A stretch of 33,228 bases of DNA from Thermosynechococcaceae cyanobacterium MS004 (GTDB taxonomy: Bacteria; Cyanobacteriota; Cyanobacteriia; Thermosynechococcales; Thermosynechococcaceae): contig JAKRSB010000022.1 in the NCBI GenBank assembly GCA_022402525.1, positions 1-33,228 on the forward strand. The letters run 5' to 3'. The translations under genes and the position numbers were made by a program. Below are positions 2,022 to 31,185 of this stretch, piece after piece. The notes below the pieces were generated by a model. The model was given only the letters and a program-made list of their open reading frames with translations. It did no database searches and had not been told where the DNA came from. How positions within the stretch are numbered: position 1 is the stretch's first letter; the number at the start of each line of letters is the position of its first letter.

Positions 2022-4988
2022 CTACGCATCAACTGGCTGCCAGTTTCCCTCTTCATCTTGCCTGAACGGGCCAGATTCGATGACGGTTTCACAGCGATCG
2101 CACAGTAGCGGATGCTTTTGTGACTGCCCCACAGTCGTTGAGTAATTCCAGCAGCGATCGCACTTATGCCCCTCGGCTTTGTCTACGGTGATGATAAATT
2201 CTGGAATCGAAGCTAGGGGAACACTCTCCGGTTTTTCCGCAACTTCGCGGATCTCAACCTGCGATACCAAAAACAGATACCTTAGCTCATCTACACCCTG
2301 AGCAATGTCGCTAGACACAGGATTTAATTGAGTTAAAAGGGTTTTGAGCTTGTCGTCCTCAACGGTAATGGTGACTTTAGCCTCTAAAGAAGCACCAATT
2401 TCCTTACTGCTGCGTTTGGCTTCAAGCTGTAGGTTAACCGCCTGACGGATCTCTCGGAGTTTGTCCCACGTCACGCCTAGATCGGGCTTTGTCCATTCTG
2501 ACTCCAGCTTGATCCAACCCGCCTCAAAGACAGACTTGTAGGGAGTGGCGTAGGGCAAAAATTGCCAGATGTCTTCGGCCATGTGGGAGAGGACAGGAGC
2601 GATCGCCCGTACCAAATTCTCCAAAGCAATCCACAGCACCGTCTGACAGCTCCGACGACGGGGTGCGTCGGGGGCGCTGATATAGAGGCGGTCTTTAGCA
2701 ATATCGAGGTAGAAGTTAGAAAGATCAACCACGCAGAAGTTTTGGACGGTCTGGAAGACGCGGAAAAATTCGTACTTTTCGTAGGCATCCGTTACCTCGG
2801 TAAACACCTCGCTGATGCGGTGCAGCATATAGCGATCGAGTTCCGGCAGGTCTGCGTAGGGTACTTCATGCTGAGTGGGGTCAAAGTCCGAAAGACTGCC
2901 CAGCAAAAACCGCGCCGTGTTGCGGATCTTGCGGTACACATCCGACATTTGCTTGAGGATATTTTTGCCTAGGGGCACATCAGAAGAATAGTCCACCGAA
3001 GACACCCACAGCCGCAGCACGTCGGCTCCGTAGGGAGGGTCTTCTTTTTGGTTTTTGCCCCCCTCAATCACGATTGCCGGATCTACAACATTTCCGATGG
3101 ATTTACTCATCTTGCGACCCTGCTCATCTAGTACAAAGCCGTGGGTCAATACCGTTTTGTAAGGGGCAATGCCCTGAGCCGCCACGCTGGTGAGCAAACT
3201 GGACTGGAACCAGCCCCGGTGCTGATCCGAGCCTTCCAGGTATAAATCTGCGGGGTAGCGTAAATTCTCGCGCTGCTCGACCACCGCCGCCCAGGAGGAG
3301 CCGGAGTCAAACCACACATCCATCGTGTCGGTGCCTTTACGGTAGGTGCGTCCGTTGTTGCGGTACGCCTCAGGCAGCAAGTCTTCGATCGATAGCTCCC
3401 ACCAGGCATCGGAACCTTTTTCAGCAATAATCGCCTTCACATGGGCGATGGTGTCCGCGTTCAGGAGTGGCTCGTTGGTTTCTTCGTCATAAAACACAGG
3501 GATGGGCACCCCCCAACTGCGCTGGCGCGAAATACACCAGTCCGAGCGCTCGGATACCATGGCGGTGATCCGATTTTCCCCCTGGGCTGGAATCCAGGTA
3601 ACGGAGGCGATCGCCTTCAATGCTTCTTCCCGAAAGCCTTCCACCGAAGCAAACCACTGCTCTGTGGCGCGAAAAATGGTGGGCTGCTTGGTGCGCCAAT
3701 CGTAGGGATACTTGTGGCTGTAGGCTTCTTGGTGCAGTAGGGAACCCACTTCATTGAGGGCATCGATGATGGCCTGGTTCCCTTCGCTCACCTCTAACTT
3801 GAGCTTGTCGTTGTCGTTTTTGGCCTTGTCTACCACCTTCAGTCCGGCAAAGCGTCCCGCTTCTTCCGTAAAGACCCCGCGATCATCCACGGGGGAGACA
3901 ATGGGCAAGCCGTAGCGGAGTCCCACCTGGTAGTCTTCCTGTCCGTGGCCGGGGGCAGTATGCACCAGTCCCGTCCCCGACTCGGTGGTGATATAGTCGC
4001 CGCCAATCACCACCTCACTCTCCCGCTCAAAGAGGGGATGGCGGTAGGTGGTATGTTCTAGCGCCTTGCCCATCACCGTAGCTTCCACCATGAGGGGCGT
4101 TTCAAACTTCGCCTCTAGGGTTTCAACTAAATCCTTTGCCACGAGCAGGTACCTGAACCGTCCAGGGGCACCATCATCCACGGCATGAACCACGGCGTAA
4201 ACAAGGTCTGGATTCACAGCGATCGCCAAGTTCCCTGGCAGCGTCCAAGGGGTCGTCGTCCAGATCGCCACCCCCAACTCACCCAGGTAGGGATGAAGGG
4301 GGCCTTGGAGTGCCTTGGGGAAAGACGTGACCTCAAAGGCCGCGTAAAGGGAGGGTGAAGTATGGCCTTCGGGATATTCCAACTCCGCTTCTGCCAGGGC
4401 AGTCTGGGAACTCGGACTCCAGTGGACAGGCTTTAGACCGCGATAGATATGGCCCTTCAGCACCATTTGCCCAAAGACCCCAATCTGTGCCGCTTCGTAC
4501 GCTGGCTGAAGCGTGAGGTAGGGTGTTTCCCACTCGCCCCAGATACCGTAGCGCTGAAAGCCCTTGCGCTGGCTATCTACGGTTTTGAGGGCAAAATCTC
4601 TGGCTTTCCAGCGCAGCTTGAGCGGAGTCAGTTCCGCCCGCTGCTCAGCCTTGAGATTTTGCAGCACCTTTAGCTCAATGGGCAGACCGTGGCAATCCCA
4701 GCCAGGGACGTAGCGCACCTTGCGCCCCTGAAGGATCTGAAACTTATTAATCGTATCCTTCAAGATTTTATTAAGGGCATGGCCGATGTGGAGGTCGCCA
4801 TTGGCGTAGGGTGGGCCATCGTGCAAAATAAACGGCTCGCCTGGGTTGTGCTGCGATCGCTGTTCGTAAATTTGGTGCTGCGCCCAGAATGACTGAAGCT
4901 CCGGCTCCCGCTTCACAGCGTTGGCGCGCATCTCAAACTTCGTTTGGGGCAGGTTAACAGTCGTTTTGTAGCTTCCAGCTTCTGTCAC
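2022..4988 (-). CDS. ileS: isoleucyl-tRNA synthetase
   Basis: This class I aminoacyl-tRNA synthetase of 988 residues charges tRNA-Ile. The HIGH signature is at residues 67-70 (GDLHIGHALNK), the catalytic loop KMSKS at 626-630, and an inserted editing domain lies between them (roughly 200-400). The C-terminal zinc finger has cysteine pairs at 943/946 and 963/966. The start is GTG: the residues that follow (TVNLPQTKFEMRAN) match the usual cyanobacterial IleS N-terminus, and the size suits the family. The gene is divergent from the diguanylate cyclase gene and appears monocistronic. Nothing is missing. Confidence 0.97.
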   Translation of the reverse strand: MTEAGSYKTTVNLPQTKFEMRANAVKREPELQSFWAQHQIYEQRSQHNPGEPFILHDGPPYANGDLHIGHALNKILKDTINKFQILQGRKVRYVPGWDCHGLPIELKVLQNLKAEQRAELTPLKLRWKARDFALKTVDSQRKGFQRYGIWGEWETPYLTLQPAYEAAQIGVFGQMVLKGHIYRGLKPVHWSPSSQTALAEAELEYPEGHTSPSLYAAFEVTSFPKALQGPLHPYLGELGVAIWTTTPWTLPGNLAIAVNPDLVYAVVHAVDDGAPGRFRYLLVAKDLVETLEAKFETPLMVEATVMGKALEHTTYRHPLFERESEVVIGGDYITTESGTGLVHTAPGHGQEDYQVGLRYGLPIVSPVDDRGVFTEEAGRFAGLKVVDKAKNDNDKLKLEVSEGNQAIIDALNEVGSLLHQEAYSHKYPYDWRTKQPTIFRATEQWFASVEGFREEALKAIASVTWIPAQGENRITAMVSERSDWCISRQRSWGVPIPVFYDEETNEPLLNADTIAHVKAIIAEKGSDAWWELSIEDLLPEAYRNNGRTYRKGTDTMDVWFDSGSSWAAVVEQRENLRYPADLYLEGSDQHRGWFQSSLLTSVAAQGIAPYKTVLTHGFVLDEQGRKMSKSIGNVVDPAIVIEGGKNQKEDPPYGADVLRLWVSSVDYSSDVPLGKNILKQMSDVYRKIRNTARFLLGSLSDFDPTQHEVPYADLPELDRYMLHRISEVFTEVTDAYEKYEFFRVFQTVQNFCVVDLSNFYLDIAKDRLYISAPDAPRRRSCQTVLWIALENLVRAIAPVLSHMAEDIWQFLPYATPYKSVFEAGWIKLESEWTKPDLGVTWDKLREIRQAVNLQLEAKRSSKEIGASLEAKVTITVEDDKLKTLLTQLNPVSSDIAQGVDELRYLFLVSQVEIREVAEKPESVPLASIPEFIITVDKAEGHKCDRCWNYSTTVGQSQKHPLLCDRCETVIESGPFRQDEEGNWQPVDA

Positions 4989-4993
4989 GGGTT

Positions 4994-5023
4994 TAATGGC
5001 GAGAGTTCTAATGGCGAGTGAGC
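4994..5023. repeat. 15-bp tandem pair upstream of ileS
   Basis: TAATGGCGAGAGTTC at 4994-5008 is followed by a near copy at 5009-5023 that differs in the last few bases. It lies immediately upstream of the ileS start on the minus strand, in the divergent spacer. Confidence 0.6.
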
Positions 5024-5162
5024 TTTGATCATACCAAGAGTCACTATCGATGGGATCTTTGAAATCCTGTTACCAATAATCTCTAGCAGAATAAAAATGC
5101 GATGTCGGCCTATCGAGTTGGGAACAATAGAAGCGAGTTTCCATTGTCAATATGTGTCAAAC

Positions 5163-6506
5163 ATGCAGCGAAAGGCCAACACTCACACGTCCCTTCGCAG
5201 TCGCCTAGTCGCGGGTGTGGGTGCAATGCTGGTGCCGCTGGCTGCCTTGGCAGGTGCCGCGTACTTTTCTTTTGAAAACGCCATTGGCAAGTTTGAGCAG
5301 ACCGAAAATAAGCGGCTTGAAGAACTGTTTCCCTTGGCCCAGCTTGATGTGCTGCTGTCCGAAAGCAATAACTTGGTTGAGGGTCAGCTGAGCGGCAGCA
5401 CCATGAGTGCGCGGCCTCGGTTTGAGTCGGTCAGCGCAAATATCCACGCGACGCTCTCCGGCATGCTGGAATCGCCTTCTCAACTGCCAGAGAAGCGCAC
5501 CCTGATTCTACGCATTCAAAAGCAGTGGCTCGCGGCCCACAACGATGCAGGACAGCTTTTTTCTTCAGCGCCTGAGTTGCCCCCAACAGCCAAACTCCAA
5601 GCACAAGCCTCCTACGAGGAGCATGTTACTGAGGCGCTTGGCAGTCTGCAGCAGCTCAACTATTTACTCTCCCACCTGCAAACCACGGAGAATCTGGAGC
5701 AAGCCAAGCAGGATCGACAGTATGTTCGTCAGGTGATTGCCCTGGTTTTTTTGGTAGCGATCGCCTTAATGGTGGTGTCAGCCAAAATCTTATCGCAACA
5801 TATCCTCGTCCCCATTCAGCGACTGAAGGATGGGGCTGCACGATTTGGGGAAGGCGACCTGTCTCACCGGATTGAGGTAGAAACTCAAGATGAGCTATCG
5901 GCACTGGCCCATGCCTTTAACCACATGGCCAAAACCCTGGAGCAAAGCCAGTCTGACCTCGTGCGACTGGCCACTCTAGATGGTCTGACAGGGGTCTACA
6001 ACCGCCGCGAGTTTAATCGATGGCTGTCCGCCGAAATTGAGCGATCGCAGCGGGAGTACCTGCCCGTTTCTTTACTGATGGTGGATATTGACCATTTCAA
6101 AAAGCTCAACGACACCTACGGCCACCAAGCGGGGGATGAAGCCTTACGCCATGTAGGGCGATTACTGCAGCGAGAAGTACGCCCTGGCGATCATGTGGCG
6201 CGGTACGGCGGCGAAGAATTTGCCATTATTTTGCCCAACGCATCGGAGGCAGAGGCCTATGTTGTGGCAGAGCGCATTAGAGCCGCCATAGAGGCCCAGT
6301 CTATTCCACTCTCTACGGAGCAAAGCCTGAGGTTTACTGCAAGTCTAGGCTTTTCAACCTTTGCCGTTGATCAAGAAACCGAGGAATCCTTTGCCCAACG
6401 GGCAGACCAAGCCCTCTACCACGCAAAGCACAGCGGTAGAAATCGAGTCTCCTCCGCAGCTCAGGTCGCACTGCAAACGGCTGAGGCCCAAGCTGCCCAT
6501 AACTAA
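5163..6506 (+). CDS. membrane-bound HAMP-GGDEF diguanylate cyclase
   Basis: From the ATG at 5163 this is 447 residues. A first membrane segment spans about 15-37 and a periplasmic helical sensor region about 38-188. The second membrane segment is at 190-210, followed by a HAMP linker to about 263. The GGDEF domain begins at LATLDGLTGVYNRREF and carries the active-site loop GGEEF at 349-353. R340-P-G-D343 lies exactly five residues before that loop, which is the RxxD inhibitory site of product-feedback-controlled cyclases. It should make cyclic di-GMP from two GTP in response to an unknown extracytoplasmic cue. The frame is open further upstream (another ATG at 5097), but no ribosome-binding site favours it. 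No EAL or HD-GYP phosphodiesterase domain is attached. Confidence 0.92.
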   Translation: MQRKANTHTSLRSRLVAGVGAMLVPLAALAGAAYFSFENAIGKFEQTENKRLEELFPLAQLDVLLSESNNLVEGQLSGSTMSARPRFESVSANIHATLSGMLESPSQLPEKRTLILRIQKQWLAAHNDAGQLFSSAPELPPTAKLQAQASYEEHVTEALGSLQQLNYLLSHLQTTENLEQAKQDRQYVRQVIALVFLVAIALMVVSAKILSQHILVPIQRLKDGAARFGEGDLSHRIEVETQDELSALAHAFNHMAKTLEQSQSDLVRLATLDGLTGVYNRREFNRWLSAEIERSQREYLPVSLLMVDIDHFKKLNDTYGHQAGDEALRHVGRLLQREVRPGDHVARYGGEEFAIILPNASEAEAYVVAERIRAAIEAQSIPLSTEQSLRFTASLGFSTFAVDQETEESFAQRADQALYHAKHSGRNRVSSAAQVALQTAEAQAAHN

Positions 6507-6517
6507 GCTGCGAGAAA

Positions 6518-6757
6518 ATGCCACAAGAGATAAACCCCATGAGACGGCTCGCGAGACAATCTAGGCGCTCCTTCCATTCCAAAATTCGCAGTAAAGCAAT
6601 TGGCCGTAAGGTGAATTCTGGCGTCCCTTCCCTGGGTCAGCCTTCAGCGCAGCAAGGTTTTGCCCTCTCCTTTGCGATCGCCATTGGACTAGTCGTCACC
6701 GCCATTGGCATTACCACCTTGTTTGTCGCGCAAAGCGATCGCCTCCACCACGACTGA
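6518..6757 (+). CDS. short prepilin-like N-terminal fragment, possibly truncated
   Basis: This is a 79-residue ORF with a basic N-terminal part and then QQGFALSFAIAIGLVV at 45-60, continuing hydrophobic to about 70 and ending shortly after with AQSDRLHHD. The G-F junction at 47/48 followed by a hydrophobic helix resembles the prepilin-peptidase site of PilX/HpsA-like minor pilins, which also often lack the usual Glu+5. Such proteins normally carry a long globular part after the helix; here a stop follows directly, so this is either a remnant or a small membrane peptide. Starts at 6518 or 6542 are both possible. It follows the diguanylate cyclase by 11 bases and converges on putA. Confidence 0.45.
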   Translation: MPQEINPMRRLARQSRRSFHSKIRSKAIGRKVNSGVPSLGQPSAQQGFALSFAIAIGLVVTAIGITTLFVAQSDRLHHD

Positions 6758-6802
6758 AGTCCTGCCCTACGCCATTCTGCGCTGTCCTTGAGGGCGGCTC
6801 AT

Positions 6803-9800
6803 CTAGGACTCCACACCCTCAATGGGGGCAAACCCCTGGCGCTGAATATTTTCGGTGACCGTGCGCGGGTCGAGGAACTGAAGGAGATAATCTGGCCCCC
6901 CCGCCTTAGAGCCCACCCCCGATAGCTTAAACCCGCCAAAGGGCTGTCTCGCCACGATCGCCCCCGTAATCGTGCGGTTGATGTAGAGATTCCCCACTTC
7001 AAATTCGGCTTTGGCCTGCTCAATATGGGACGGGGTACGGGAATAGAGTCCCCCCGTGAGGGCGTAGTTGGTGCCGTTGGCGATCGCCAGCGCCTCCCCA
7101 AAGGTCTGGGCTTTGATTACCGACAGGACAGGGCCGAAAATTTCTTGCTGGGCAAGGACAGACTGAGGATCCACATCAGCAAAAATCACAGGGCCAACGA
7201 AGTAGCCTGGTTCTGGGGAGGGCAGTTCTAGGGCAAGGGTGGATTCCTGTTTGCCCTGGGCGATCGCTGCATGAATGCGCTGTTGGGCTGCAAGATCAAT
7301 CACAGGCCCCACCTTGGTGCTAGGGTCGGCGGCATCTCCCACATTCAGCGATTTAGTCGCTTCTACCAGCCGTGCCACAAAGCTATCGTATACGGGTGCC
7401 AGCACCACCACGCGGGAGCAGGCCGAGCATTTTTGACCGCTATAGCCAAAAGCAGAATAGACCACACCCTGAACGGCTTGGTCAAGGTCAGCACTCTCAT
7501 CAATGATGATGGCGTTTTTGCCCCCCATCTCTGCCACGACACGCTTCAGGTGCTTTTGTCCGGGCTGTAAAATCGCGGCACTCGCATAAATCTGACAGCC
7601 CACTTCCTGGGAACCCGTAAACACAATCATCTGCACGTCGGGATGCTTCACGAGATGGTTGCCCACGGTCGCACCGCTGCCCGGAACATACTGGAATACC
7701 CCCTTAGGAATGCCTGCTTCCACTAAAATCTCGCTTAGCTTGGCGGCAATCACCGATGTCACCGCAGCGGGCTTGAGTAAGACACAGTTTCCCGTCACCA
7801 GGGCGGCAACGGTCATTCCCGTGGGAATGGCAAGGGGGAAGTTCCAGGGAGAAATGACCAGCACAATCCCCTTGGGACGGTAAAAATAGCGATCGCTCTC
7901 TCCGGCCACATCGTAGATAATTTCTGGATCGAGGCGCTCCATTTCCGCTGCATAGTAGCGACAGAAATCTGCGGCTTCTGAGACTTCAACATCCGCCTGA
8001 TGGAGCGGTTTCCCCGCCTCAAGCACCATCCAGGCGTTGAGTTCATGGCGACGGGCTTCCAGTAAGTCTGCCGCTCGCCGCAGGATAGCGGCGCGTTCCT
8101 GGGCTGGGGTTTGTTTCCAGGTTAAGAAGGCTGCTTTGGCAGCGGCGATCGCCTGTTCGGCCTGGTCAAGATTAATTTGGCCGACAGTGCCCACCACTTC
8201 TGTGGGGTTGGATGGATTCACAGATTGAATGGTCTTGTCCGTTGCCGCCCGTACCCCATCGATGAGGGGCAAATAGTGCTGACCCAACTGCTGCCGTACT
8301 GTGCTTAGGGCAGTAGCCGCCGCTGAGCGCAATGGGGCGATCACATAGTCTGTATCCGCAGAGGGATTGATGCGGGTGACGGTCGAAGTCGAGGCCACAA
8401 TCGGCGTGGGCTGGACGACGGTTCCATCCGCGTCGCCTTCGCCCCAAGTGGGTGCAGCCAGCAGCCCCTCTAGGGATTGCCCCGTCACGCTTTGGCGCAG
8501 GAAGGAGCTATTGGCGGTATTTTCCAGTAGCCGCCGGATCAAGTAGGCCATGCCCGGAATCAGCGGCCCGTAGGGGCAGTACACCCGCACCCGATGCCCC
8601 CGTTTTGCTAGGGCGACCGCGAGGGTATCCGCCATGCCGTAGAGGACTTGGAATTCGAGGTGCCCTTGAGGAATCTTCAGGGCTTGGGCGATCGCAATGG
8701 CGTGAGCCTGGGAGCGCACATTATGGCTGCCAATGGCGGCATGGAGATGCTCATGGTTGGCCAGCAGCAGCGCCGTCATGCGCTCAAAATTGGCATCCGT
8801 GGAGGATTTATGGTTATAGACGGGGGTGGGCCAGTGATTTTGGCGGGCGATGATGGTTTCTTGGTCCCAGTAGGCCCCTTTGATTAAGCGCACGGTGACA
8901 GGCTTCCCTCGCTGTTTGGCCCAGGCAATCAACCCCTGTAAGTCTTGGTAGCTATCCCGTAGATAGGCTTGCAGGGTGAGGCCAATATCGGTGCGATCGC
9001 GGAATTCCTCCTCCATCAAAAGCTGCTTGAGGGTGGCCAAAGTCGCGTTCTTATAGCGGTACTGCTCCATATCAAAATGCACCGCTGCGCCGACGGTCTG
9101 GGCTTGGCGGAGCAGAATTCGGATGCGATCGCTCACCTTGCGCTGGGAACCCTCAACATCCAGCGGATCAAACTGGGAGTAAAACGCCGTCAGCTTCACC
9201 GAAACCTGAACCGGAGTCAAAGCCACCCCATCGGCAGCATCCACCTGGGGGACGGGCGACCAGCGCTGAGAGGCTTCCGTGAGCTGGGTCATCAACGTCA
9301 GGTATTGGTCGAGGTAGGCTTGGGCTTCAGCTTCTGTGACCACAGCTTCTCCCAATACGTCCACGGTGAAGGCCATAGACTGTTTGCGAAGCTGTTCAAT
9401 GGTCTGGAGCGTCTGCTTCAGGGTTTCCCCAGAGATATACTTGCGCGCCAGGGTTTCGACGGCAGTAGAGAGGGTGGTGGCTGCAACCTGCCCCGGCATG
9501 GAATCGTTCGCCGTAAAGTTGAGCAGTCCCTTGAGGGCCTGGGGCAGTTCCACTTCAGGGTCGCTGAGATATTCCTGAAGGTGACGGGCAATTTCGGCCT
9601 TGGTGGTGAGGGAGGGCAGACAGTCAATGAGTCGAAAAAGCTGCACCCGCAGGGCAGGGTTATCCATCGTCCAGCTCAGCAGCTTATCGTCCCAGCGGAA
9701 CTGATCCCGCACCTTAGCAAAGAGCGATCGCTTTTCCGTGGCTTCTGCTAGAAGCTGACGGGCAATATCCTGAGTCTTTTCCTCGTAGTCAGTCTGGATG

Positions 9801-9838
9801 AAGCTATCGGAATATGCACGAGATGAATTCACAATCAT
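6803..9838 (-). CDS. putA: bifunctional proline dehydrogenase / L-glutamate gamma-semialdehyde dehydrogenase
   Basis: The chosen ATG lies seven bases after a perfect AGGAGG and gives 1011 residues. An ATG ten codons earlier has no such site. The N-terminal half is a FAD-dependent proline dehydrogenase barrel, with VSVKLTAFYSQF, VTVRLIKGAYWD and a C-terminal YLIRRLLENTANSSF motif. The second half (about 510-1000) is an aldehyde dehydrogenase of the P5C type with SPWNFPLAIPTG, the EMGGKN glutamate motif and catalytic Cys804 in GQKCSACS. Together the domains oxidise proline to glutamate. No DNA-binding ribbon-helix-helix domain precedes the enzyme, so it is not an autoregulating PutA. It lies downstream of cphA and cphB on the same strand, which fits use of arginine/proline carbon and nitrogen from cyanophycin. 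Confidence 0.95.
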   Translation of the reverse strand: MIVNSSRAYSDSFIQTDYEEKTQDIARQLLAEATEKRSLFAKVRDQFRWDDKLLSWTMDNPALRVQLFRLIDCLPSLTTKAEIARHLQEYLSDPEVELPQALKGLLNFTANDSMPGQVAATTLSTAVETLARKYISGETLKQTLQTIEQLRKQSMAFTVDVLGEAVVTEAEAQAYLDQYLTLMTQLTEASQRWSPVPQVDAADGVALTPVQVSVKLTAFYSQFDPLDVEGSQRKVSDRIRILLRQAQTVGAAVHFDMEQYRYKNATLATLKQLLMEEEFRDRTDIGLTLQAYLRDSYQDLQGLIAWAKQRGKPVTVRLIKGAYWDQETIIARQNHWPTPVYNHKSSTDANFERMTALLLANHEHLHAAIGSHNVRSQAHAIAIAQALKIPQGHLEFQVLYGMADTLAVALAKRGHRVRVYCPYGPLIPGMAYLIRRLLENTANSSFLRQSVTGQSLEGLLAAPTWGEGDADGTVVQPTPIVASTSTVTRINPSADTDYVIAPLRSAAATALSTVRQQLGQHYLPLIDGVRAATDKTIQSVNPSNPTEVVGTVGQINLDQAEQAIAAAKAAFLTWKQTPAQERAAILRRAADLLEARRHELNAWMVLEAGKPLHQADVEVSEAADFCRYYAAEMERLDPEIIYDVAGESDRYFYRPKGIVLVISPWNFPLAIPTGMTVAALVTGNCVLLKPAAVTSVIAAKLSEILVEAGIPKGVFQYVPGSGATVGNHLVKHPDVQMIVFTGSQEVGCQIYASAAILQPGQKHLKRVVAEMGGKNAIIIDESADLDQAVQGVVYSAFGYSGQKCSACSRVVVLAPVYDSFVARLVEATKSLNVGDAADPSTKVGPVIDLAAQQRIHAAIAQGKQESTLALELPSPEPGYFVGPVIFADVDPQSVLAQQEIFGPVLSVIKAQTFGEALAIANGTNYALTGGLYSRTPSHIEQAKAEFEVGNLYINRTITGAIVARQPFGGFKLSGVGSKAGGPDYLLQFLDPRTVTENIQRQGFAPIEGVES

Positions 9839-9927
9839 CAAATAGCCTCCTGAGGCATGAAGATTCAACTCACCTCTAAATGTCCGAGGAATCTCAGAGC
9901 GTTTTAGTCTTAGAAGCCAGCGGCCTA

Positions 9928-10011
9928 ATAAAATCTACAAAATCTACAGCACTGCTAATGCACAGCACTGTTAAATCTACAGCACAACACTATTCACCCA
10001 CAGCACTATTA
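9928..10011. repeat. degenerate short repeats between putA and cphA
   Basis: Variants of AAATCTACAGCAC and CACAGCACTRTT recur four to five times with irregular spacing. The unit is specific to this spacer. No reading frame or hairpin explains it. Confidence 0.6.
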
Positions 10012-10037
10012 TCTGTCGAACGATATCCAGTTTGCCA

Positions 10038-10121
10038 AGATTGGATGAACAGAGTTGAGTGGGCAAGGTTGAATGGGCAAAGTTGAATGGGCAAAGTTGA
10101 ATGAGCAAAATTGAGTGAACA
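10038..10121. repeat. six-copy 14-bp degenerate tandem repeat
   Basis: Six contiguous 14-base units start at 10038, 10052, 10066, 10080, 10094 and 10108, with a consensus near ARRTTGARTGGGCA. A decayed seventh runs into the cphA stop region. Units three to five differ by only one or two bases. The array has no dyad symmetry like an operator and no spacers like a CRISPR, and its 14-base period does not preserve a reading frame. Confidence 0.85.
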
Positions 10122-10132
10122 AGATTGGGGCA

Positions 10133-12919
10133 CTAGATGCCAGCAGTCCCGTTACCGCCCACAGAAACTGGATTGAGGACAGAGTCTTGTGTCAGCCGTG
10201 AATCTGGGGCTGGCTCTGGGACTGGCTCTGGGGCTGGCTCCGGGGCTGATTCGGTCGCCACAGACGCCTCAGAAGACACTCCCTCCAGCGCATCGGCCAC
10301 TGGATTGCGGGACATAATGAGCGAAATGGCCCGACTCACGCTATCGGGGAAAATCACCACCAAGGACTTTTCCGGAGCATGATCTAGCGCCCAAGCGATC
10401 GCCTCTGCTTCATCTAGCTGCACCGAATAGGACACGGGCTTAGCAGGGTCTGTCTTAGTCTGAGAAATACCCTGCACAATCAGCTCCGCCGCATTTCCCC
10501 GTGGGCGGCCCCGATTGTCATCATCTTCTTTCACAATAATCTGGTCAAAAAACGTCGCCGAAAGCTGACCCAGCTCCGCCAAGTCTTCATCTCGGCGATC
10601 GCCAGGCCCCCCCACCACACCAATCCTCGGCCCCGGCCAATTTTTGACAAAGCTGCCCACCGCTTCATAGCCTGCGGGATTGTGGGCATAGTCCACCAGG
10701 GCATGAAAGTGACCCAGGTTAAACAAATTCATGCGCCCTGGGGTCTGCTGCGCGGATGCCTTGAAACTACGCAGCCCTGCTCGGATCTGCTCCACCCCCA
10801 CTCCCTGAACAAAAGCCGCCAAGCTGGCCGCTAAGGCATTGGCAATCATAAAGGGTGCCCGCCCCCCTAAGGTGAGCGGCACCTGCTCGATTTTCTCAAT
10901 GCGATGGATCCAATCCTGCTGCAAAATGACGATATATCCATCTTTCAGGACAGCCGCAATGCCGCCCCGCTGAACCTGCGATCGCACCCGTGGATTGTCA
11001 GGGTCCATCGAAAAATAAGCAACCTTCCCGCGCACTAAGTCAGCCATCGCTGCAACACGATCATCCTCGGCATTGAGTACGGCATAACCATCCGCATGTA
11101 CCGCCTCCGCAATCACACCCTTCACCCTGGCCATCTGGTCAATGGTGTTGATATCGCCGAGTCCAAGGTGATCCGCCGCCACATTCAGCACCACCCCCAC
11201 ATCGCAGGATTCAAAGGCCAGACCAGACCGCAAAATACCACCCCGAGCTGTTTCTAAGACCGCAATATCCACCGTCGGATCCTGCAAAATAAGCTGGGCG
11301 CTCTGAGGGCCAGTGGTGTCTCCCTTCTCAATGAGGTGACCCCCAATATAGATCCCGTCCGTCGTTGTAAAGCCGACCGACTCATGCACCTGGCTAAAAA
11401 TATGAGCAATGAGGCGAGTCGTCGTCGTCTTGCCGTTGGTTCCCGTCACCGCCACAATCGGGACACGAGTCGGTGTCCCCGGAGGGAACAGCATCCGCAG
11501 AATGGGTGCCGCCACATTGCGCCCGACCCCTTGACTCGGCGAGATGTGCATCCGCAACCCAGGAGCCGCATTGACCTCCACAATGACCCCATCCGCTTCA
11601 GCCAACGTCTTGGTAATGTCCGTCGTGATCACGTCAATCCCCGCCACATCCAGGTCAATAATGCGCGAAACCCGCTCAGCCAGCCACAAGGTTTCTGGAT
11701 GGATATCGTCCGTGCGGTCAATGGCAATGCCGCCCGTACTCAGGTTGGCCGTTGCCCGAAGGTAGCAAACCTGGCCGACCTCCAGAACCGTCTCAAGGAT
11801 AAAACCCTGATTCCTTAGCAGCTCATCCGTGGCGTCATCTAGCTCAATATGGGTGAGCATGTTGTCGTGACCCGCCCCACGCCGCTCATCTTGGTTTTCC
11901 TGCGCCACCAGCTCGGCAATTGTCGCAACCCCATCCCCAATCACATGAGCCGGAACGCGCTCTGCCACGGCCACGACCTTATGATTGACCACCAAAATGC
12001 GGTGATCGCGCCCCTGGTAGAAATGCTCAACAATCACTCCCTTGGAGACATCGCGCGCGCGGTCATAGGCTACTTCTGCCTGCTCTGCGGACTGAATATT
12101 AATCGTAATGCCTCGCCCGTGGTTGCCATCCAGAGGCTTAATGACAATGGGATAGCCACCCAAGCTGCTAATGGCTTCTTCTAGTTCGCTAAAGGAAAAA
12201 ACAACTTTTCCCAGGGGCACAGGAATGCCCATACTGGACAAAATATTTTTAGTTCTCTCCTTATCGCAGGCCAACTCAACCCCCAGCACATTGCTGTGGG
12301 AGGTCAGCGCAGCCTGAATCCGCTTTTGATATTTACCGTAGCCAAACTGAAAGAGATCGCAAGTCTCTAGCTGCATCCAGGGAATGCCCAAGGCCTCTGC
12401 CTCACGTACCAGAGCCTCCGTACTTGCGCCCAGGGTAGCGTCCACCCGCAGTCCTTTCAGATCCTCCAAGTCCTGAGCTAACTCAGCGGTAGGATAGCTG
12501 CCCGTCTGCACAATGCTTTGGCAGAGGCGCAGTGCCGCCCTTGCCGCGTATCTTCCAGCCGCTTCATCTTGATACTCAAAGACGACTTGGTAAATTCCCG
12601 GCGTCGCTGTCTCACGGGTGCGACCAAACCCGACGGGCATATCGGCCAAGGTTTGCAGTTCTAGCGCCACATGCTCCAAAATATGGCCCATCATGGTGCC
12701 CTCTCGCACCCGACTTAGAAACCCACCTCGGCATCCTGGTGAGCAAAAGTGTTCTTCCAGGCTAGGCAGGGCTGCGATGAGTCCTTCATAAAATCCAGGA
12801 ATAGTATTTGAGGGGCGATCAGCCAGCTCCTCCAAATCCAGCCGAACAACAATCAGCTTTGATCGACGAATGCTCCAGTAGTTTGGGCCGCGAAGCGTTT
12901 GGGTTTGGAGAATTTTCAT
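10133..12919 (-). CDS. cphA: cyanophycin synthetase
   Basis: The 928-residue enzyme polymerises aspartate and arginine into multi-L-arginyl-poly-L-aspartate using ATP. The N-terminal domain has the typical MKILQTQTLRGPNYWSIRR opening. An ATP-grasp domain holds PIVIKPLDGNHGRGI near residue 220. The Mur-ligase-like domain begins with the P-loop GTNGKTTT at 493-500 and continues through the C-terminal ligase part (VDYAHNPAGY, GGPGDRRDEDL). The far C-terminus extends past the usual end with a P-E-P-A/V-rich tail of about 50 residues. Cyanophycin is a cytoplasmic nitrogen reserve; cphB lies upstream on the same strand, 529 bases away. I did not find a convincing NtcA site (GTA-N8-TAC) in front of it. 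Confidence 0.97.
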   Translation of the reverse strand: MKILQTQTLRGPNYWSIRRSKLIVVRLDLEELADRPSNTIPGFYEGLIAALPSLEEHFCSPGCRGGFLSRVREGTMMGHILEHVALELQTLADMPVGFGRTRETATPGIYQVVFEYQDEAAGRYAARAALRLCQSIVQTGSYPTAELAQDLEDLKGLRVDATLGASTEALVREAEALGIPWMQLETCDLFQFGYGKYQKRIQAALTSHSNVLGVELACDKERTKNILSSMGIPVPLGKVVFSFSELEEAISSLGGYPIVIKPLDGNHGRGITINIQSAEQAEVAYDRARDVSKGVIVEHFYQGRDHRILVVNHKVVAVAERVPAHVIGDGVATIAELVAQENQDERRGAGHDNMLTHIELDDATDELLRNQGFILETVLEVGQVCYLRATANLSTGGIAIDRTDDIHPETLWLAERVSRIIDLDVAGIDVITTDITKTLAEADGVIVEVNAAPGLRMHISPSQGVGRNVAAPILRMLFPPGTPTRVPIVAVTGTNGKTTTTRLIAHIFSQVHESVGFTTTDGIYIGGHLIEKGDTTGPQSAQLILQDPTVDIAVLETARGGILRSGLAFESCDVGVVLNVAADHLGLGDINTIDQMARVKGVIAEAVHADGYAVLNAEDDRVAAMADLVRGKVAYFSMDPDNPRVRSQVQRGGIAAVLKDGYIVILQQDWIHRIEKIEQVPLTLGGRAPFMIANALAASLAAFVQGVGVEQIRAGLRSFKASAQQTPGRMNLFNLGHFHALVDYAHNPAGYEAVGSFVKNWPGPRIGVVGGPGDRRDEDLAELGQLSATFFDQIIVKEDDDNRGRPRGNAAELIVQGISQTKTDPAKPVSYSVQLDEAEAIAWALDHAPEKSLVVIFPDSVSRAISLIMSRNPVADALEGVSSEASVATESAPEPAPEPVPEPAPDSRLTQDSVLNPVSVGGNGTAGI
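10206..10253 (-). repeat. 12-bp tandem repeat encoding the PEPA tail of CphA
   Basis: Four 12-base units (10206, 10218, 10230, 10242; plus-strand consensus GGGGCTGGCTCT) encode the P-E-P-A/V steps at the end of cyanophycin synthetase. The period is a multiple of three, so expansion stays in frame. It probably forms a flexible acidic tail outside the catalytic core. Confidence 0.8.
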
Positions 12920-27482: not shown

Positions 27483-28493
27483 GTGCTTGGGGAACCTGTT
27501 GTGATCCGTACTGCAACGCTGCCTCTGCCGTCTGCTTTGCCCGTCATCCCAGAAAATAACCGTCTCAAAGTCTTTTCTGGATCTTCCAATCTTGCTCTCT
27601 CCCAGGAAGTTGCGCGCTACCTAGGGGTCGATTTAGGGCCAATGGTGCGGAAAAGCTTTGCTGATGGTGAACTCTACGTTCAGATTCAAGAGTCTATTCG
27701 CGGCTGCGATGTGTACCTGATTCAGCCCACCTGTAAGCCCGTCAACGACAACTTGATGGAGCTGCTGATTATGATTGATGCGTGCCGACGCGCATCAGCA
27801 CGGCAAATTACAGCAGTTATTCCCTACTACGGCTACGCACGAGCAGATCGCAAGACCGCAGGGCGTGAGTCCATTACGGCAAAGCTTGCGGCCAACCTCA
27901 TTACTCAGGCTGGGGCGAGTCGAATTCTGGCGATGGATCTGCACTCGGCCCAAATTCAGGGATACTTTGATATTCCGGTTGACCATGTGTATGGCTCCCC
28001 TTGCCTGCTGAAATACCTGAAGCAAAAGAATCTGCCGGACTTGGTGGTTGTTTCTCCAGACGTGGGCGGCGTGGCGCGAGCCAGAGCCTTTGCAAACAAG
28101 CTAAACGATGCGCCCCTTGCCATCATCGATAAGCGTCGTCAGGCCCACAACGTCGCTGAAGTGATGAACGTTGTGGGGGATGTGGCGGGCAAAACGGCCG
28201 TGCTGGTGGACGACATGATCGATACGGGCGGCACAATCTCCGAAGCAGCGCGCCTGCTGAAAAAAGAAGGCGCTAAAGGTGTCTATGCCTGTGCAACCCA
28301 CGCTGTCTTTTCACCCCCTGCTGTTGAGCGCCTTTCCAGCGGTGTGTTTGAAGAAGTGATTGTTACCAATACGGTTCCAGTGCCTGAAGATCGACGGTTT
28401 CCGCAGTTGACGGTACTCTCAGTGGCAGACATATTGGGTGAAACCATCTGGCGAGTCCATGAAGATAGCTCGGTCAGCATCATGTTTCGGTAG
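27483..28493 (+). CDS. prs: ribose-phosphate pyrophosphokinase
   Basis: The 336-residue enzyme makes PRPP from ribose 5-phosphate and ATP for nucleotide, histidine, tryptophan and NAD synthesis. The class I motifs are present: RKSFADGELYVQIQESIRG, YARADRK, DLHSAQIQGYFDIPVDHVYG with the catalytic-flap histidine His154, VVSPDVGGVARARAFA and the PRPP loop VLVDDMIDTGGT at 240-251. The start is a GTG; a second GTG at 27501, eight bases after GGGGA, may be the true start and would remove six residues. The gene is followed by the Wadjet relic, 98 bases downstream. Confidence 0.95.
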   Translation: MLGEPVVIRTATLPLPSALPVIPENNRLKVFSGSSNLALSQEVARYLGVDLGPMVRKSFADGELYVQIQESIRGCDVYLIQPTCKPVNDNLMELLIMIDACRRASARQITAVIPYYGYARADRKTAGRESITAKLAANLITQAGASRILAMDLHSAQIQGYFDIPVDHVYGSPCLLKYLKQKNLPDLVVVSPDVGGVARARAFANKLNDAPLAIIDKRRQAHNVAEVMNVVGDVAGKTAVLVDDMIDTGGTISEAARLLKKEGAKGVYACATHAVFSPPAVERLSSGVFEEVIVTNTVPVPEDRRFPQLTVLSVADILGETIWRVHEDSSVSIMFR

Positions 28494-28591
28494 TCGATTA
28501 GCCTCTGCCCTAAGCCAGTGGTATAGAGCAGCGTAAGATTGGCACATGAACTTTTATGCAGGCTATCCAGACTTGCTGACTCAAGTGTCTT

Positions 28592-29497
28592 ATGGAATAT
28601 GAGCTACTGAAGTATGAGTTAAAAACATCCCATACACTCAAGCTGTTACGAAGCCCAAATGCAGCCTTCGTGATCAGCTTTTTATATCGGCAGTTTAAGG
28701 CCACACAGCAGGTTTCTGTGGCTCAGTCTGACCTAGAGACAAAACTAGGTGACTACCTCGAAGAACTGCAAGAGGTTTACCCCGAAACTTACCCGCGATC
28801 GCCGAAGGAGTACCTGAGCGAGTGGTGCGATAGCCAACTGTTAAGAAAAACCTTTGACAGTAGTGATGAGCCCGTCTTTACGCTCACTTCCGATGCAGAA
28901 AAAGCAATCATCTGGCTAGAGGATCTGCAAAAGCGAGATGAGTTTGTCGGGACAGAATCGCGCTTTTTGCAAATTTTCGATCTTTTAAAAGAAATCCAAG
29001 ATCGCAGCACAACGGATATTGCGACGCGAATTGCGCAACTAGAGCGCGATCGCGATCAAATTCAGGAAGAAATTGATCAAATCCAGCAGACTGGCGTCGT
29101 TCAGTCCTTCAACCCGATCCAGCTTCAAGAGCGATTCTTACTCGCCAACCAAGTCACGCGCCAATTAATTGCCGACTTCAAGGAAATTGTGCAAAACTTT
29201 CGGAATCTAACTCGGAAAGTTCAGGAAGCGCAGTTCGAAAAAGATAGCCGGAAAGGGATGGTGCTCAGCCGGGTGCTAGACGCAGATCAGGAATTAAAGG
29301 ACTCTGACCAAGGACAAAGCTTCTATGCCTTCTGGAATTTTCTCATGTCAACCAGCAAGCGACAGGAGAAAAAATCTATGATTCAGAAACGATTGCCCAG
29401 GGTGAGGCAAAGCTGCGAAGTCAATTTCAAGATCAGCTCCGCCAAAAAGAGCGGCAGCAAGAAAGCTCGCGTAGCTCCCTCACGATACAAATGCTGA
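28592..29497 (+). pseudogene. truncated JetA (DUF3375), Wadjet defence remnant
   Basis: The 301-codon ORF matches the N-terminal part of DUF3375/JetA, the kleisin-like subunit of Wadjet condensin systems. Visible family features are the opening with HTLKLLRSPNAAFVISFLYR, PRSPKEYLSEWCDSQ, the FVGTESRFLQIFDLLKEI helix, a coiled-coil stretch, LIADFKEIVQNFRNL and finally DADQELKDSDQGQSFYAFWNFLMS. That similarity stops near residue 252 (about 29350), where intact proteins run on to about 480-490. The remaining codons translate a different frame of what looks like jetC. The gene is therefore 3'-truncated and the complex cannot form. It starts 98 bases after prs on the same strand. Confidence 0.8.
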
Positions 29498-29565
29498 ATT
29501 TCAAGAATGCTTTTCCAGAATCTACGCTAGATCTCGGCACACCCTTTAAAGGTTGTGGAATATAG
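29353..29565 (+). pseudogene. short JetC (SMC/MukB-like ATPase) coiled-coil fragment
   Basis: In the frame of base 29341, out of frame with JetA, about 70 codons stay open to a TAG at 29563. They read as a charged coiled coil (EAKLRSQFQDQLRQKERQQE) followed by IQMLNFKNAFPESTLDL, which resembles the M-x-x-F-x-x-x-F-P-x-x-x-x-D-L motif late in the coiled-coil part of JetC ATPases. No Walker A or B region remains. The identification is from memory of the family pattern, so it is moderate. The fragment sits exactly between JetA and JetD, the order expected if jetB and most of jetC were deleted. Confidence 0.6.
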
Positions 29566-30316
29566 CGATCGTTGGAACGATCTGCTCAAGGTCTGCCTAT
29601 ATTTTCAGCGAAATCCAAAGCCCAATCTTTATATTCGGGAGCTTCCTATTCAGGTTCACACAAAATTTATTGAGCAAAACCAGGGTATAATTCGCAGCCT
29701 TCTAGATGAAATTATTCCAAAAGAACAATTGAATCCCATCAAGGGAGAAAAGGAATATATTTTTGAAAAATATTTTTCCTTGAAATACCGTGAGCCGCTG
29801 ATTAGAATTCGAATTTTAGATCCGCTGGTTAAGACAAACTATAATTTCCCTGCAACAGATATTAGTATTCCAGTCTCTGAATTTAGAAGCTTAAGTCTAG
29901 GAAACTGTAACTGCTTTATTACAGAGAATCTTATGAATTTTCTTACCCTGCCTCTTTTGAAGAATAGCTTTGCAATTTTTGGCAGCGGCTATGCTGTTCA
30001 GGCTTTAAAGACAGTTTCCTGGCTGTCACAACATTCTATTTTCTATTGGGGAGACCTAGATCTGGATGGATTCAAAATCTTATCTCAACTGAGATCTTAT
30101 TTTCCCCATGCTGCTTCCATCATGATGGACAGTAAAACCTTTGAAGCATTTCATGAGTTTGCAGTTCCGGTTGCAGGCGCGATCGCTGAGATTTTACCTC
30201 ATCTAACTGAAGAAGAAAATAGGCTTTATCAGTATCTTGCTTTTCATCAAAAGCGTTTGGAACAGGAACGCATCAGTCAAGAGTACGTTAACAAGTTTCT
30301 ACAGAATTTATCATAA
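29555..30316 (+). CDS. N-terminally truncated JetD (DUF3322/DUF2220) topoisomerase-like nuclease remnant
   Basis: The 253-residue reading starts at a GTG and enters the family in mid-domain: RWNDLLKVCLYF...PNLYIRELPIQVHTKFIEQNQG is the end of DUF3322. The C-terminal DUF2220 Toprim-type module is complete, with Glu124 in CFITENLMNFL and the acidic triad DLDLD at 167-171 in YWGDLDLDGF. JetD cleaves plasmid DNA in Wadjet systems; intact proteins are near 390 residues, so about 130-150 are missing. There is no ribosome-binding site before the GTG. The sequence is visibly more AT-rich than the flanking housekeeping genes. It may be a pseudogene or, less likely, a stand-alone nuclease domain. Confidence 0.8.
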   Translation: MEYSDRWNDLLKVCLYFQRNPKPNLYIRELPIQVHTKFIEQNQGIIRSLLDEIIPKEQLNPIKGEKEYIFEKYFSLKYREPLIRIRILDPLVKTNYNFPATDISIPVSEFRSLSLGNCNCFITENLMNFLTLPLLKNSFAIFGSGYAVQALKTVSWLSQHSIFYWGDLDLDGFKILSQLRSYFPHAASIMMDSKTFEAFHEFAVPVAGAIAEILPHLTEEENRLYQYLAFHQKRLEQERISQEYVNKFLQNLS

Positions 30317-30450
30317 AATTTATTACAAAAATAAATTAAACTTTTATCTCAACTCCAATTGAATTTATAGAATGAGACAAAGAGAAGAAACTTCGCTCGA
30401 TATTATTTCGCTCTAGGTTAGAGTAATATCCGATCTTGAGATAGAAATAA

Positions 30451-30482
30451 ACTGTAAAACATATAGACTGTAAAATATAAAA
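30451..30482. repeat. 16-bp tandem pair before cobO
   Basis: ACTGTAAAACATATAG (30451-30466) is followed by ACTGTAAAATATAAAA (30467-30482). The 206-base AT-rich spacer 30317-30522 shows no B12-box-like motif or cobalamin riboswitch structure that I can recognise. Confidence 0.65.
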
Positions 30483-30522
30483 ATTTAACTCAAAATTTGT
30501 AGTTTGAAATCTATAGGGTGTT

Positions 30523-31185
30523 ATGACGTTTACAGAAGATGCCACAGGATCTCTTAATACGCTAGAGGCTCAGCAGTATGAAGGGCTCAGCGAAGCGCAG
30601 TATCGGAAAAAAATGCAGCGCCGGAAGGAAGTCCAGGAGCAACGCCTTGCTGAGCGATCGCAAACGAAGGGCCTCATCATTGTCCACACCGGAAATGGGA
30701 AGGGCAAAACAACAGCGGCCTTAGGCATGGTGTTACGCACTCTGGGGCACGGGCATAAAGCTGCCATCATTCAGTTTATTAAAGGAGCCTGGGAGCCTGC
30801 TGAAAAGGCGGTCTTTGGGCGCTGGGAAGATCAGCTTGCCTTTCATGCGATGGGTGAAGGCTTTACCTGGGAAACCCAAGATCGCGATCGCGATATTGCT
30901 AAGGCAAAAGAGGCTTGGCAAACTGCGCTGGACTACATCAAAGACCCAAACTATAAGCTTGTCCTGCTGGATGAGATCAATATTGCCCTAAAGCTGACCT
31001 ATCTTCAGCCAGAGGAAATTTTGGCAGGTCTGGAGGAAAAGCCAGAGGACTCCCACATTATTTTGACGGGTCGTAGTGCCCCCCAATCGTTGATTGACGC
31101 AGCGGATTTAGTCACTGAAATGACCTTGGTTAAGCATCCCTTCCGAGAACAGGGTATTAAAGCCCAGGCTGGCATTGAGTTTTAA
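30523..31185 (+). CDS. cobO: cob(I)yrinic acid a,c-diamide adenosyltransferase
   Basis: This 220-residue CobA/CobO/BtuR-type enzyme transfers the adenosyl group of ATP to the cobalt of corrinoids. The modified P-loop GNGKGKTT is at 57-64 in VHTGNGKGKTTAALGMVLR. FIKGAWEPAEK, FTWETQDRDRD, VLLDEINIAL and ILTGRSAP are all family signatures. The helical N-terminal extension (1-47) is a little longer than in enterobacteria and normal in cyanobacteria. It lies downstream of the Wadjet remnant but is unrelated to it. Confidence 0.95.
   Translation: MTFTEDATGSLNTLEAQQYEGLSEAQYRKKMQRRKEVQEQRLAERSQTKGLIIVHTGNGKGKTTAALGMVLRTLGHGHKAAIIQFIKGAWEPAEKAVFGRWEDQLAFHAMGEGFTWETQDRDRDIAKAKEAWQTALDYIKDPNYKLVLLDEINIALKLTYLQPEEILAGLEEKPEDSHIILTGRSAPQSLIDAADLVTEMTLVKHPFREQGIKAQAGIEF

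What the first reader, a model, noticed from the sequence alone, without database searches (positions are those of the whole stretch)
28592..30316. Collapsed type I Wadjet (JetABCD) operon: JetA' - JetC' - JetD' joined by internal deletions
Seen: a DUF3375/JetA N-terminal part ends abruptly after FYAFWNFLMS. An out-of-frame coiled-coil piece with the late-JetC M-x-x-F-x-x-x-F-P motif follows. A JetD lacking its first 130-150 residues then runs to a normal stop. JetA and JetD are in the same frame, with JetC' in another. Known: Wadjet operons are jetA-jetB-jetC-jetD, encoding a plasmid-cleaving condensin. Inference: at least two deletions removed jetB, nearly all of jetC and the start of jetD, leaving a fossil between prs and cobO. 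The JetD part is more AT-rich than its neighbours, as expected for acquired DNA. Loss of a plasmid-restricting system suggests the lineage may now tolerate plasmids.
Basis: partly seen in the sequence, partly recalled or inferred. Interest (0 to 1): 0.72.

Follow-up and report, generated by a model that had tools for sequence, protein, structure and literature searches.

The report
Collapsed anti-plasmid Wadjet operon fossil
A cyanobacterium carries the recently broken remains of a known anti-plasmid defence operon (Wadjet type I): two internal deletions removed about 4.8 kb, and similar wrecks turn up in several other cyanobacteria.

Summary
The finding is confirmed. Window 28592-30316 holds three pieces of one type I Wadjet (jetABCD) operon: JetA codons 1-265 of about 482, 52 codons of JetC (residues 784-835 of about 1118, in another frame), and JetD from residue about 128 to its normal end. 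Intact relatives (L003, L004, L005, L059) show that about 3.57 kb was lost between JetA' and JetC' and about 1.23 kb between JetC' and JetD'. jetB and the other missing parts are nowhere else in this genome. Both joints share only 1-2 certain bases with the relatives, so an assembly collapse at a repeat is unlikely.

All three pieces look like recently functional genes: no stops and purifying selection along this lineage, even in the out-of-frame JetC piece. The deletions are therefore young.

The suggested prs-cobO comparison is impossible (unlinked in the relatives examined). Plasmid tolerance remains untested.

New context: among 390 cyanobacterial genomes, 15 have type I jet genes. Five loci are intact, three contig-limited, six or seven broken. 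In one other genus the same site is empty, intact or fossil. This is an ordinary fossil of a known system, with a hint of recurrent loss.

The parts
28592..29386 (+). JetA' : first 265 of about 482 codons of jetA (kleisin, DUF3375)
   Evidence: PADLOC PDLC00457 E 6.9e-90; Pfam PF11855 E 3e-71; 77% identity to intact JetA of L003 and L004; no internal stop
29386..29386 (+). deletion joint 1: jetA codon 265 joined to jetC codon 784; about 3.57 kb lost (jetA 3' end, all of jetB, most of jetC)
   Evidence: 3564-3577 bp between the same codons in seven operons without an insert there; one base (G) read by both frames
29386..29541 (+). JetC' : 52 codons of jetC (residues 784-835 of 1118, coiled coil with MLNFKNAFP), in a different frame from JetA' and JetD'
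   Evidence: 63% identity to Kastovskya JetC; E 5e-13 in the whole-genome search
29540..29541 (+). deletion joint 2: jetC codon 835 joined to jetD codon 128/129; about 1.23 kb lost (jetC 3' end and jetD 5' end)
   Evidence: 1224-1228 bp between the same points in six operons without a lesion between them; 1-2 shared bases
29543..30316 (+). JetD' : about 257 codons of jetD (end of DUF3322 plus Toprim/JetD_C), normal stop; conserved acidic residues kept (E at 29924, D at 30053 and 30059)
   Evidence: PADLOC PDLC00522 E 5.9e-105; PF09983 E 1.4e-45; invariant residues
27483..28493 (+). prs (ribose-phosphate pyrophosphokinase), upstream flank
   Evidence: Pfam PF13793/PF14572
30523..31185 (+). cobO (cob(I)alamin adenosyltransferase), downstream flank
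   Evidence: Pfam PF02572

Best explanation
This is the decaying remnant of a horizontally acquired type I Wadjet operon. When intact, JetA, JetB and JetC would have formed a loop-extruding SMC complex that recognises small circular DNA, and JetD would have cut it. Two separate illegitimate deletions (about 3.57 kb and about 1.23 kb) left JetA 1-265, JetC 784-835 and JetD 128-end. Shown: family identity, order, deletion endpoints, absence of the rest of the system from the assembly, intact frames, and purifying selection along the lineage. Inferred: the locus no longer restricts plasmids, because the JetC ATPase, JetB and half of the kleisin are gone; the deletions are recent; the joints arose by short-microhomology repair or replication slippage.
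For: Profile matches for JetA and JetD. Colinearity of all three pieces with intact operons in L003, L004, L005 and L059. Near-constant deletion spans across relatives and joints sharing only 1-2 certain bases. Own-genome searches find only these fragments of JetA, JetC and JetD and no JetB. No jetD in 57 relatives. Along this lineage dN/dS is 0.06 for A+D (0.12 elsewhere) and 0.09 for the now out-of-frame JetC piece; a neutral branch is rejected by 97 and 8 log-likelihood units. No stop in 574 codons, which limits neutral change since collapse to roughly 0.04 substitutions per site. Parallel fossils and interrupted operons in other cyanobacteria, one of them (G160) at a site that holds an intact operon in congeneric G148 and no jet genes in ten other genomes.
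Against: The assembly is a draft (150 contigs) and reads were not available, so a real 4.8 kb could in principle be missing. No genome of the same species, or of the genus with an intact operon, was found, so the pre-deletion state of this exact site is inferred from more distant genera. Retained frames could also mean that JetA' or JetD' is still used.
Confidence: 0.93

Rival explanations
1. Assembly collapse or chimera: the strain has an intact jetABCD operon and the assembler skipped 4.8 kb in two places.
For: Draft assembly of 150 contigs; fragments without stops.
Against: An assembler needs a shared k-mer to join two points, but at both joints the relatives share only 1-2 certain bases. 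The skipped parts would then normally appear on other contigs of a 100%-complete assembly, and they do not. Two separate collapses in one operon are needed.
Confidence: 0.04
2. JetD' is an exapted stand-alone Toprim nuclease (or JetA' a truncated kleisin-like protein) kept by selection after the collapse.
For: JetD' keeps 69 of 71 residues invariant in relatives, including the acidic active-site residues, and has an open frame of 253 codons with a possible GTG start at 29555. dN/dS on the branch is low.
Against: The 52-codon JetC piece, which has no plausible use, is equally open and similarly conserved, so recency explains everything. JetD' lacks the first ~127 residues of its N-terminal region, which holds the DNA-binding/autoinhibitory CAP domain. 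AAAGG lies only about 3 bases before the GTG, so the start site is poor (by eye). JetD alone cuts DNA only at artificially high concentration (PMC10586767).
Confidence: 0.04
3. A naturally compact Wadjet variant that never had jetB or a full jetC.
For: Three Jet pieces in the right order.
Against: JetC' is out of frame and consists of 52 internal coiled-coil codons without the ATPase heads. The breakpoints fall inside conserved domains at single codons, with near-constant spans against intact operons. No second genome in the samples has this arrangement.
Confidence: 0.005

Closest known systems
Wadjet type I (JetABCD / MksBEFG / EptABCD), as in Kastovskya adunca L003, Cyanosarcina radialis L004 and Nostoc sp. 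MG11 L005
   Same: Same gene order, same families; 73-77% protein identity over JetA' and JetD' to L003 and L004
   Different: jetB absent; jetC reduced to 52 of 1118 codons; jetA and jetD truncated; cannot form the complex
Spontaneous 23 kb deletion containing jetABCD in Clostridium cellulovorans (PMC12287153)
   Same: Spontaneous loss of a chromosomal Wadjet system by deletion
   Different: There the whole operon was lost in the laboratory in one large deletion; here two small internal deletions left a scar in a natural genome
Collapsed Wadjet locus in cyanobacterium G160 (L113 8326-8436), between a pyridoxal-dependent decarboxylase gene and nrdR
   Same: Fossil of a type I operon, a short JetC scrap in chromosomal context
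   Different: Only 37 JetC codons remain; a congeneric genome (G148) has the intact operon at the same site and ten others have no jet genes there

Membership tests
Wadjet type I (as ancestry of the fragments) | JetA (DUF3375) kleisin | tested here: met
   N-terminal 265 residues only; PADLOC JetA1 E 6.9e-90
Wadjet type I (as ancestry of the fragments) | JetD with type I JetD (DUF3322/JetD_C) profile | tested here: met
   JetD1 E 5.9e-105, residues 134-379 of 382
Wadjet type I (as a working system) | JetB (KITE subunit) | tested here: not met
   No JetB match in the whole genome up to E 1
Wadjet type I (as a working system) | JetC SMC ATPase with head domains (Walker A/B) and full coiled coil | tested here: not met
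   Only residues 784-835 of 1118 remain, in a frame not joined to JetA' or JetD'
Wadjet type I (as a working system) | Full JetA including the C-terminal part, and full JetD including the N-terminal region | tested here: not met
   JetA C-terminal 217 and JetD N-terminal ~127 residues absent from the genome
Wadjet type I (as a working system) | jetA-jetB-jetC-jetD order | tested here: met
   Fragments colinear with intact operons, minus the deleted parts
Wadjet type I (as a working system) | Restriction of small circular plasmids | not testable with these tools
   Needs a plasmid transformation or conjugation assay

The most novel reading that the evidence does not exclude
Type I Wadjet is a transient, repeatedly purged passenger in cyanobacteria: acquired sporadically, then broken by deletions and transposons within a short time, perhaps because it conflicts with resident small plasmids or polyploid chromosomes. 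This window is a freshly made example.
Probability: 0.35. Interest if true: 0.5.

Novelty: new member of a known kind. Interest (0 to 1): 0.3.

Why it matters
Wadjet is one of few defences aimed at plasmids, and deleting it raised conjugative plasmid uptake about 100,000-fold in C. cellulovorans (PMC12287153). A young natural loss, and several parallel wrecks in one bacterial class, give material to ask why such a system is lost and whether loss is followed by plasmid gain. It also warns annotators: JetA and JetD profile hits side by side here do not mean a working system.

Tried and rejected
prs-cobO interval in sister genomes: not informative, because the two genes are unlinked in the relatives checked (for example G006: 1,612,017 against 248,450; different contigs in G002, G003 and G007). 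AT-richness of JetD as a sign of foreign origin: intact JetD is equally AT-rich. Finding the missing parts on other contigs: none. Other JetD_C proteins in the genome, such as other Wadjet types: none. Extending the broken-operon survey to the order of G169 found no new carriers. Literature on Wadjet decay in cyanobacteria: nothing specific found. The mechanical output 'open frame 1661 aa' for G169 jetC suggested an intein, but translation shows 19 stops and an ORF of 510 aa on the opposite strand flanked by inverted ends, so it is a transposon-like insert.

Full report
What is there. The window is a complete 33,228-base contig (C65) of a 4.93 Mb, 150-contig cyanobacterial genome, G000. Between prs (27483-28493) and cobO (30523-31185) lie three pieces of a jetABCD operon. 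JetA' (28592-29386) matches the PADLOC JetA1 model at E 6.9e-90 over model positions 1-268 of 480 and DUF3375 at E 3e-71. JetD' (about 29540-30316) matches JetD1 at E 5.9e-105 from model position 134 to 379 of 382 and the JetD_C domain at E 1.4e-45. The middle piece (29386-29541), in another frame, is 63% identical over 52 residues to JetC residues 784-835 of Kastovskya adunca; a whole-genome search with full JetC finds it at E 5e-13. Chance is excluded.

Anatomy of the collapse. Intact operons were found in Kastovskya (L003), Cyanosarcina (L004), Nostoc sp. MG11 (L005) and G148 (L059). JetA' and JetD' are 77% and 73% identical to those of Kastovskya. In the seven operons without an insert between the first pair of breakpoint codons the distance is 3564-3577 bp; for the second pair it is 1224-1228 bp in the six operons without a lesion there. 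At joint 1 the last base of JetA codon 265 is the first base of JetC codon 784. At joint 2 one or two bases (CA) fit both sides. The true ancestor is unknown, so the microhomology could be somewhat longer. In total about 4.8 kb was lost: 217 JetA codons, all of JetB, 1,066 JetC codons and about 127 JetD codons.

Not an assembly artefact, most likely. The missing parts are absent elsewhere in the genome: full JetA finds only JetA', JetB finds nothing up to E 1, full JetC and full JetD find only these fragments, and the JetD_C family finds only JetD'. Joining two points without a shared k-mer is not what assemblers do. Reads were not available, so this step is an inference.

Age. In a codon model over eight cyanobacterial operons, dN/dS on the branch to this genome is 0.064 for JetA'+JetD' against 0.116 elsewhere. 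For the JetC piece, which is out of frame today, it is 0.09. Forcing neutrality on the branch costs 97 and 8 log-likelihood units respectively. The 574 codons contain no stop; simulated neutral change of about 0.04 substitutions per site would already leave a stop-free set in only about 5% of runs. The branch itself is about 3.3-4.7 neutral substitutions per codon, that is roughly 1.1-1.6 per site. So almost all divergence happened while the operon was intact, and the collapse is young. JetD' keeps 69 of 71 residues that are invariant in the relatives, including the acidic residues of the Toprim centre. The glutamate at 29924 corresponds by position to E248, the residue mutated in the solved JetD(E248A) structure 8q72 (offset inferred).

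Origin. No jetD match was found in 57 relatives, including two genomes of the same genus and 26 more of the family; full-length JetA was likewise absent from the six same-genus and same-family genomes tested with it. This points to acquisition by this lineage.

Parallel cases. In 390 genomes of the class, 15 have type I jet genes. Five loci look intact (G142, G148, G183, G315, G343). Three are cut by contig ends (G095, G228, G284). Six are clearly broken: this one; G143 (only JetA 1-127); G160 (only JetC 1022-1058); G167 (JetB 97-190 plus JetC 1-373); G169 (a 1.6 kb transposon-like insert in jetC and a 2.4 kb insert in jetD); G376 (an IS605-OrfB/TnpB-type insert near the end of jetD). G329 has a frameshift near JetC residue 1070 next to a run of C, which could be a sequencing error. 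In the genus of G148 and G160 the site is seen in three states: decarboxylase and nrdR adjacent with no jet genes in ten genomes (in one of them, G315, the operon sits on another contig), an intact operon between them in G148, and a 1.5 kb interval with a 37-codon JetC scrap in G160. This is independent evidence that such operons enter a site and collapse there. The sample is small and no control operon was counted, so 'excess loss' is a hypothesis.

Function. In working systems JetABC is the DNA sensor and motor and JetD the nuclease, and all four subunits are required (PMC10586767). With no JetB and no JetC ATPase, this locus should not restrict plasmids. That the lineage now takes plasmids more easily is reasonable by analogy with C. 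[quoted passage not shown]

Verdict. It is an ordinary fossil of a known defence system; the recurrent decay across cyanobacteria is the part worth following.

Noticed in passing
L113 8326-8436 (G160), L059 4047-10580 (G148), loci L153-L178: The same chromosomal site (decarboxylase gene to nrdR) is without jet genes in ten genomes of one genus, holds an intact jetABCD in G148 and a 37-codon JetC fossil in G160.
   Followed up: yes
L115 (G169) 9277-10893 and 4274-6719; L116 (G376) 3546-4951: Other cyanobacterial Wadjet operons are interrupted by insertion elements: a 510-aa ORF with transposase-like look in G169 jetC, a 2.4 kb insert in G169 jetD, and an OrfB_IS605/TnpB-type gene in G376 jetD.
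   Followed up: partly
L114 (G167) 6287-7673; L112 (G143) 5418-5801: Two further remnants in contig interiors: a JetB-C-terminus plus JetC 1-373 slab, and JetA 1-127 alone, with no other jet genes found in those genomes.
   Followed up: partly
L057 3600-3800 (G329): jetC is frameshifted near residue 1070 beside a run of six C; could be a real lesion or a long-read homopolymer error.
   Followed up: no
28494-28591 and 30317-30522: The spacers around the fossil have no DNA match in the neighbourhoods of prs or cobO in relatives; the downstream spacer is very AT-rich (25% GC). prs and cobO are unlinked elsewhere, so a genome rearrangement boundary lies here.
   Followed up: partly
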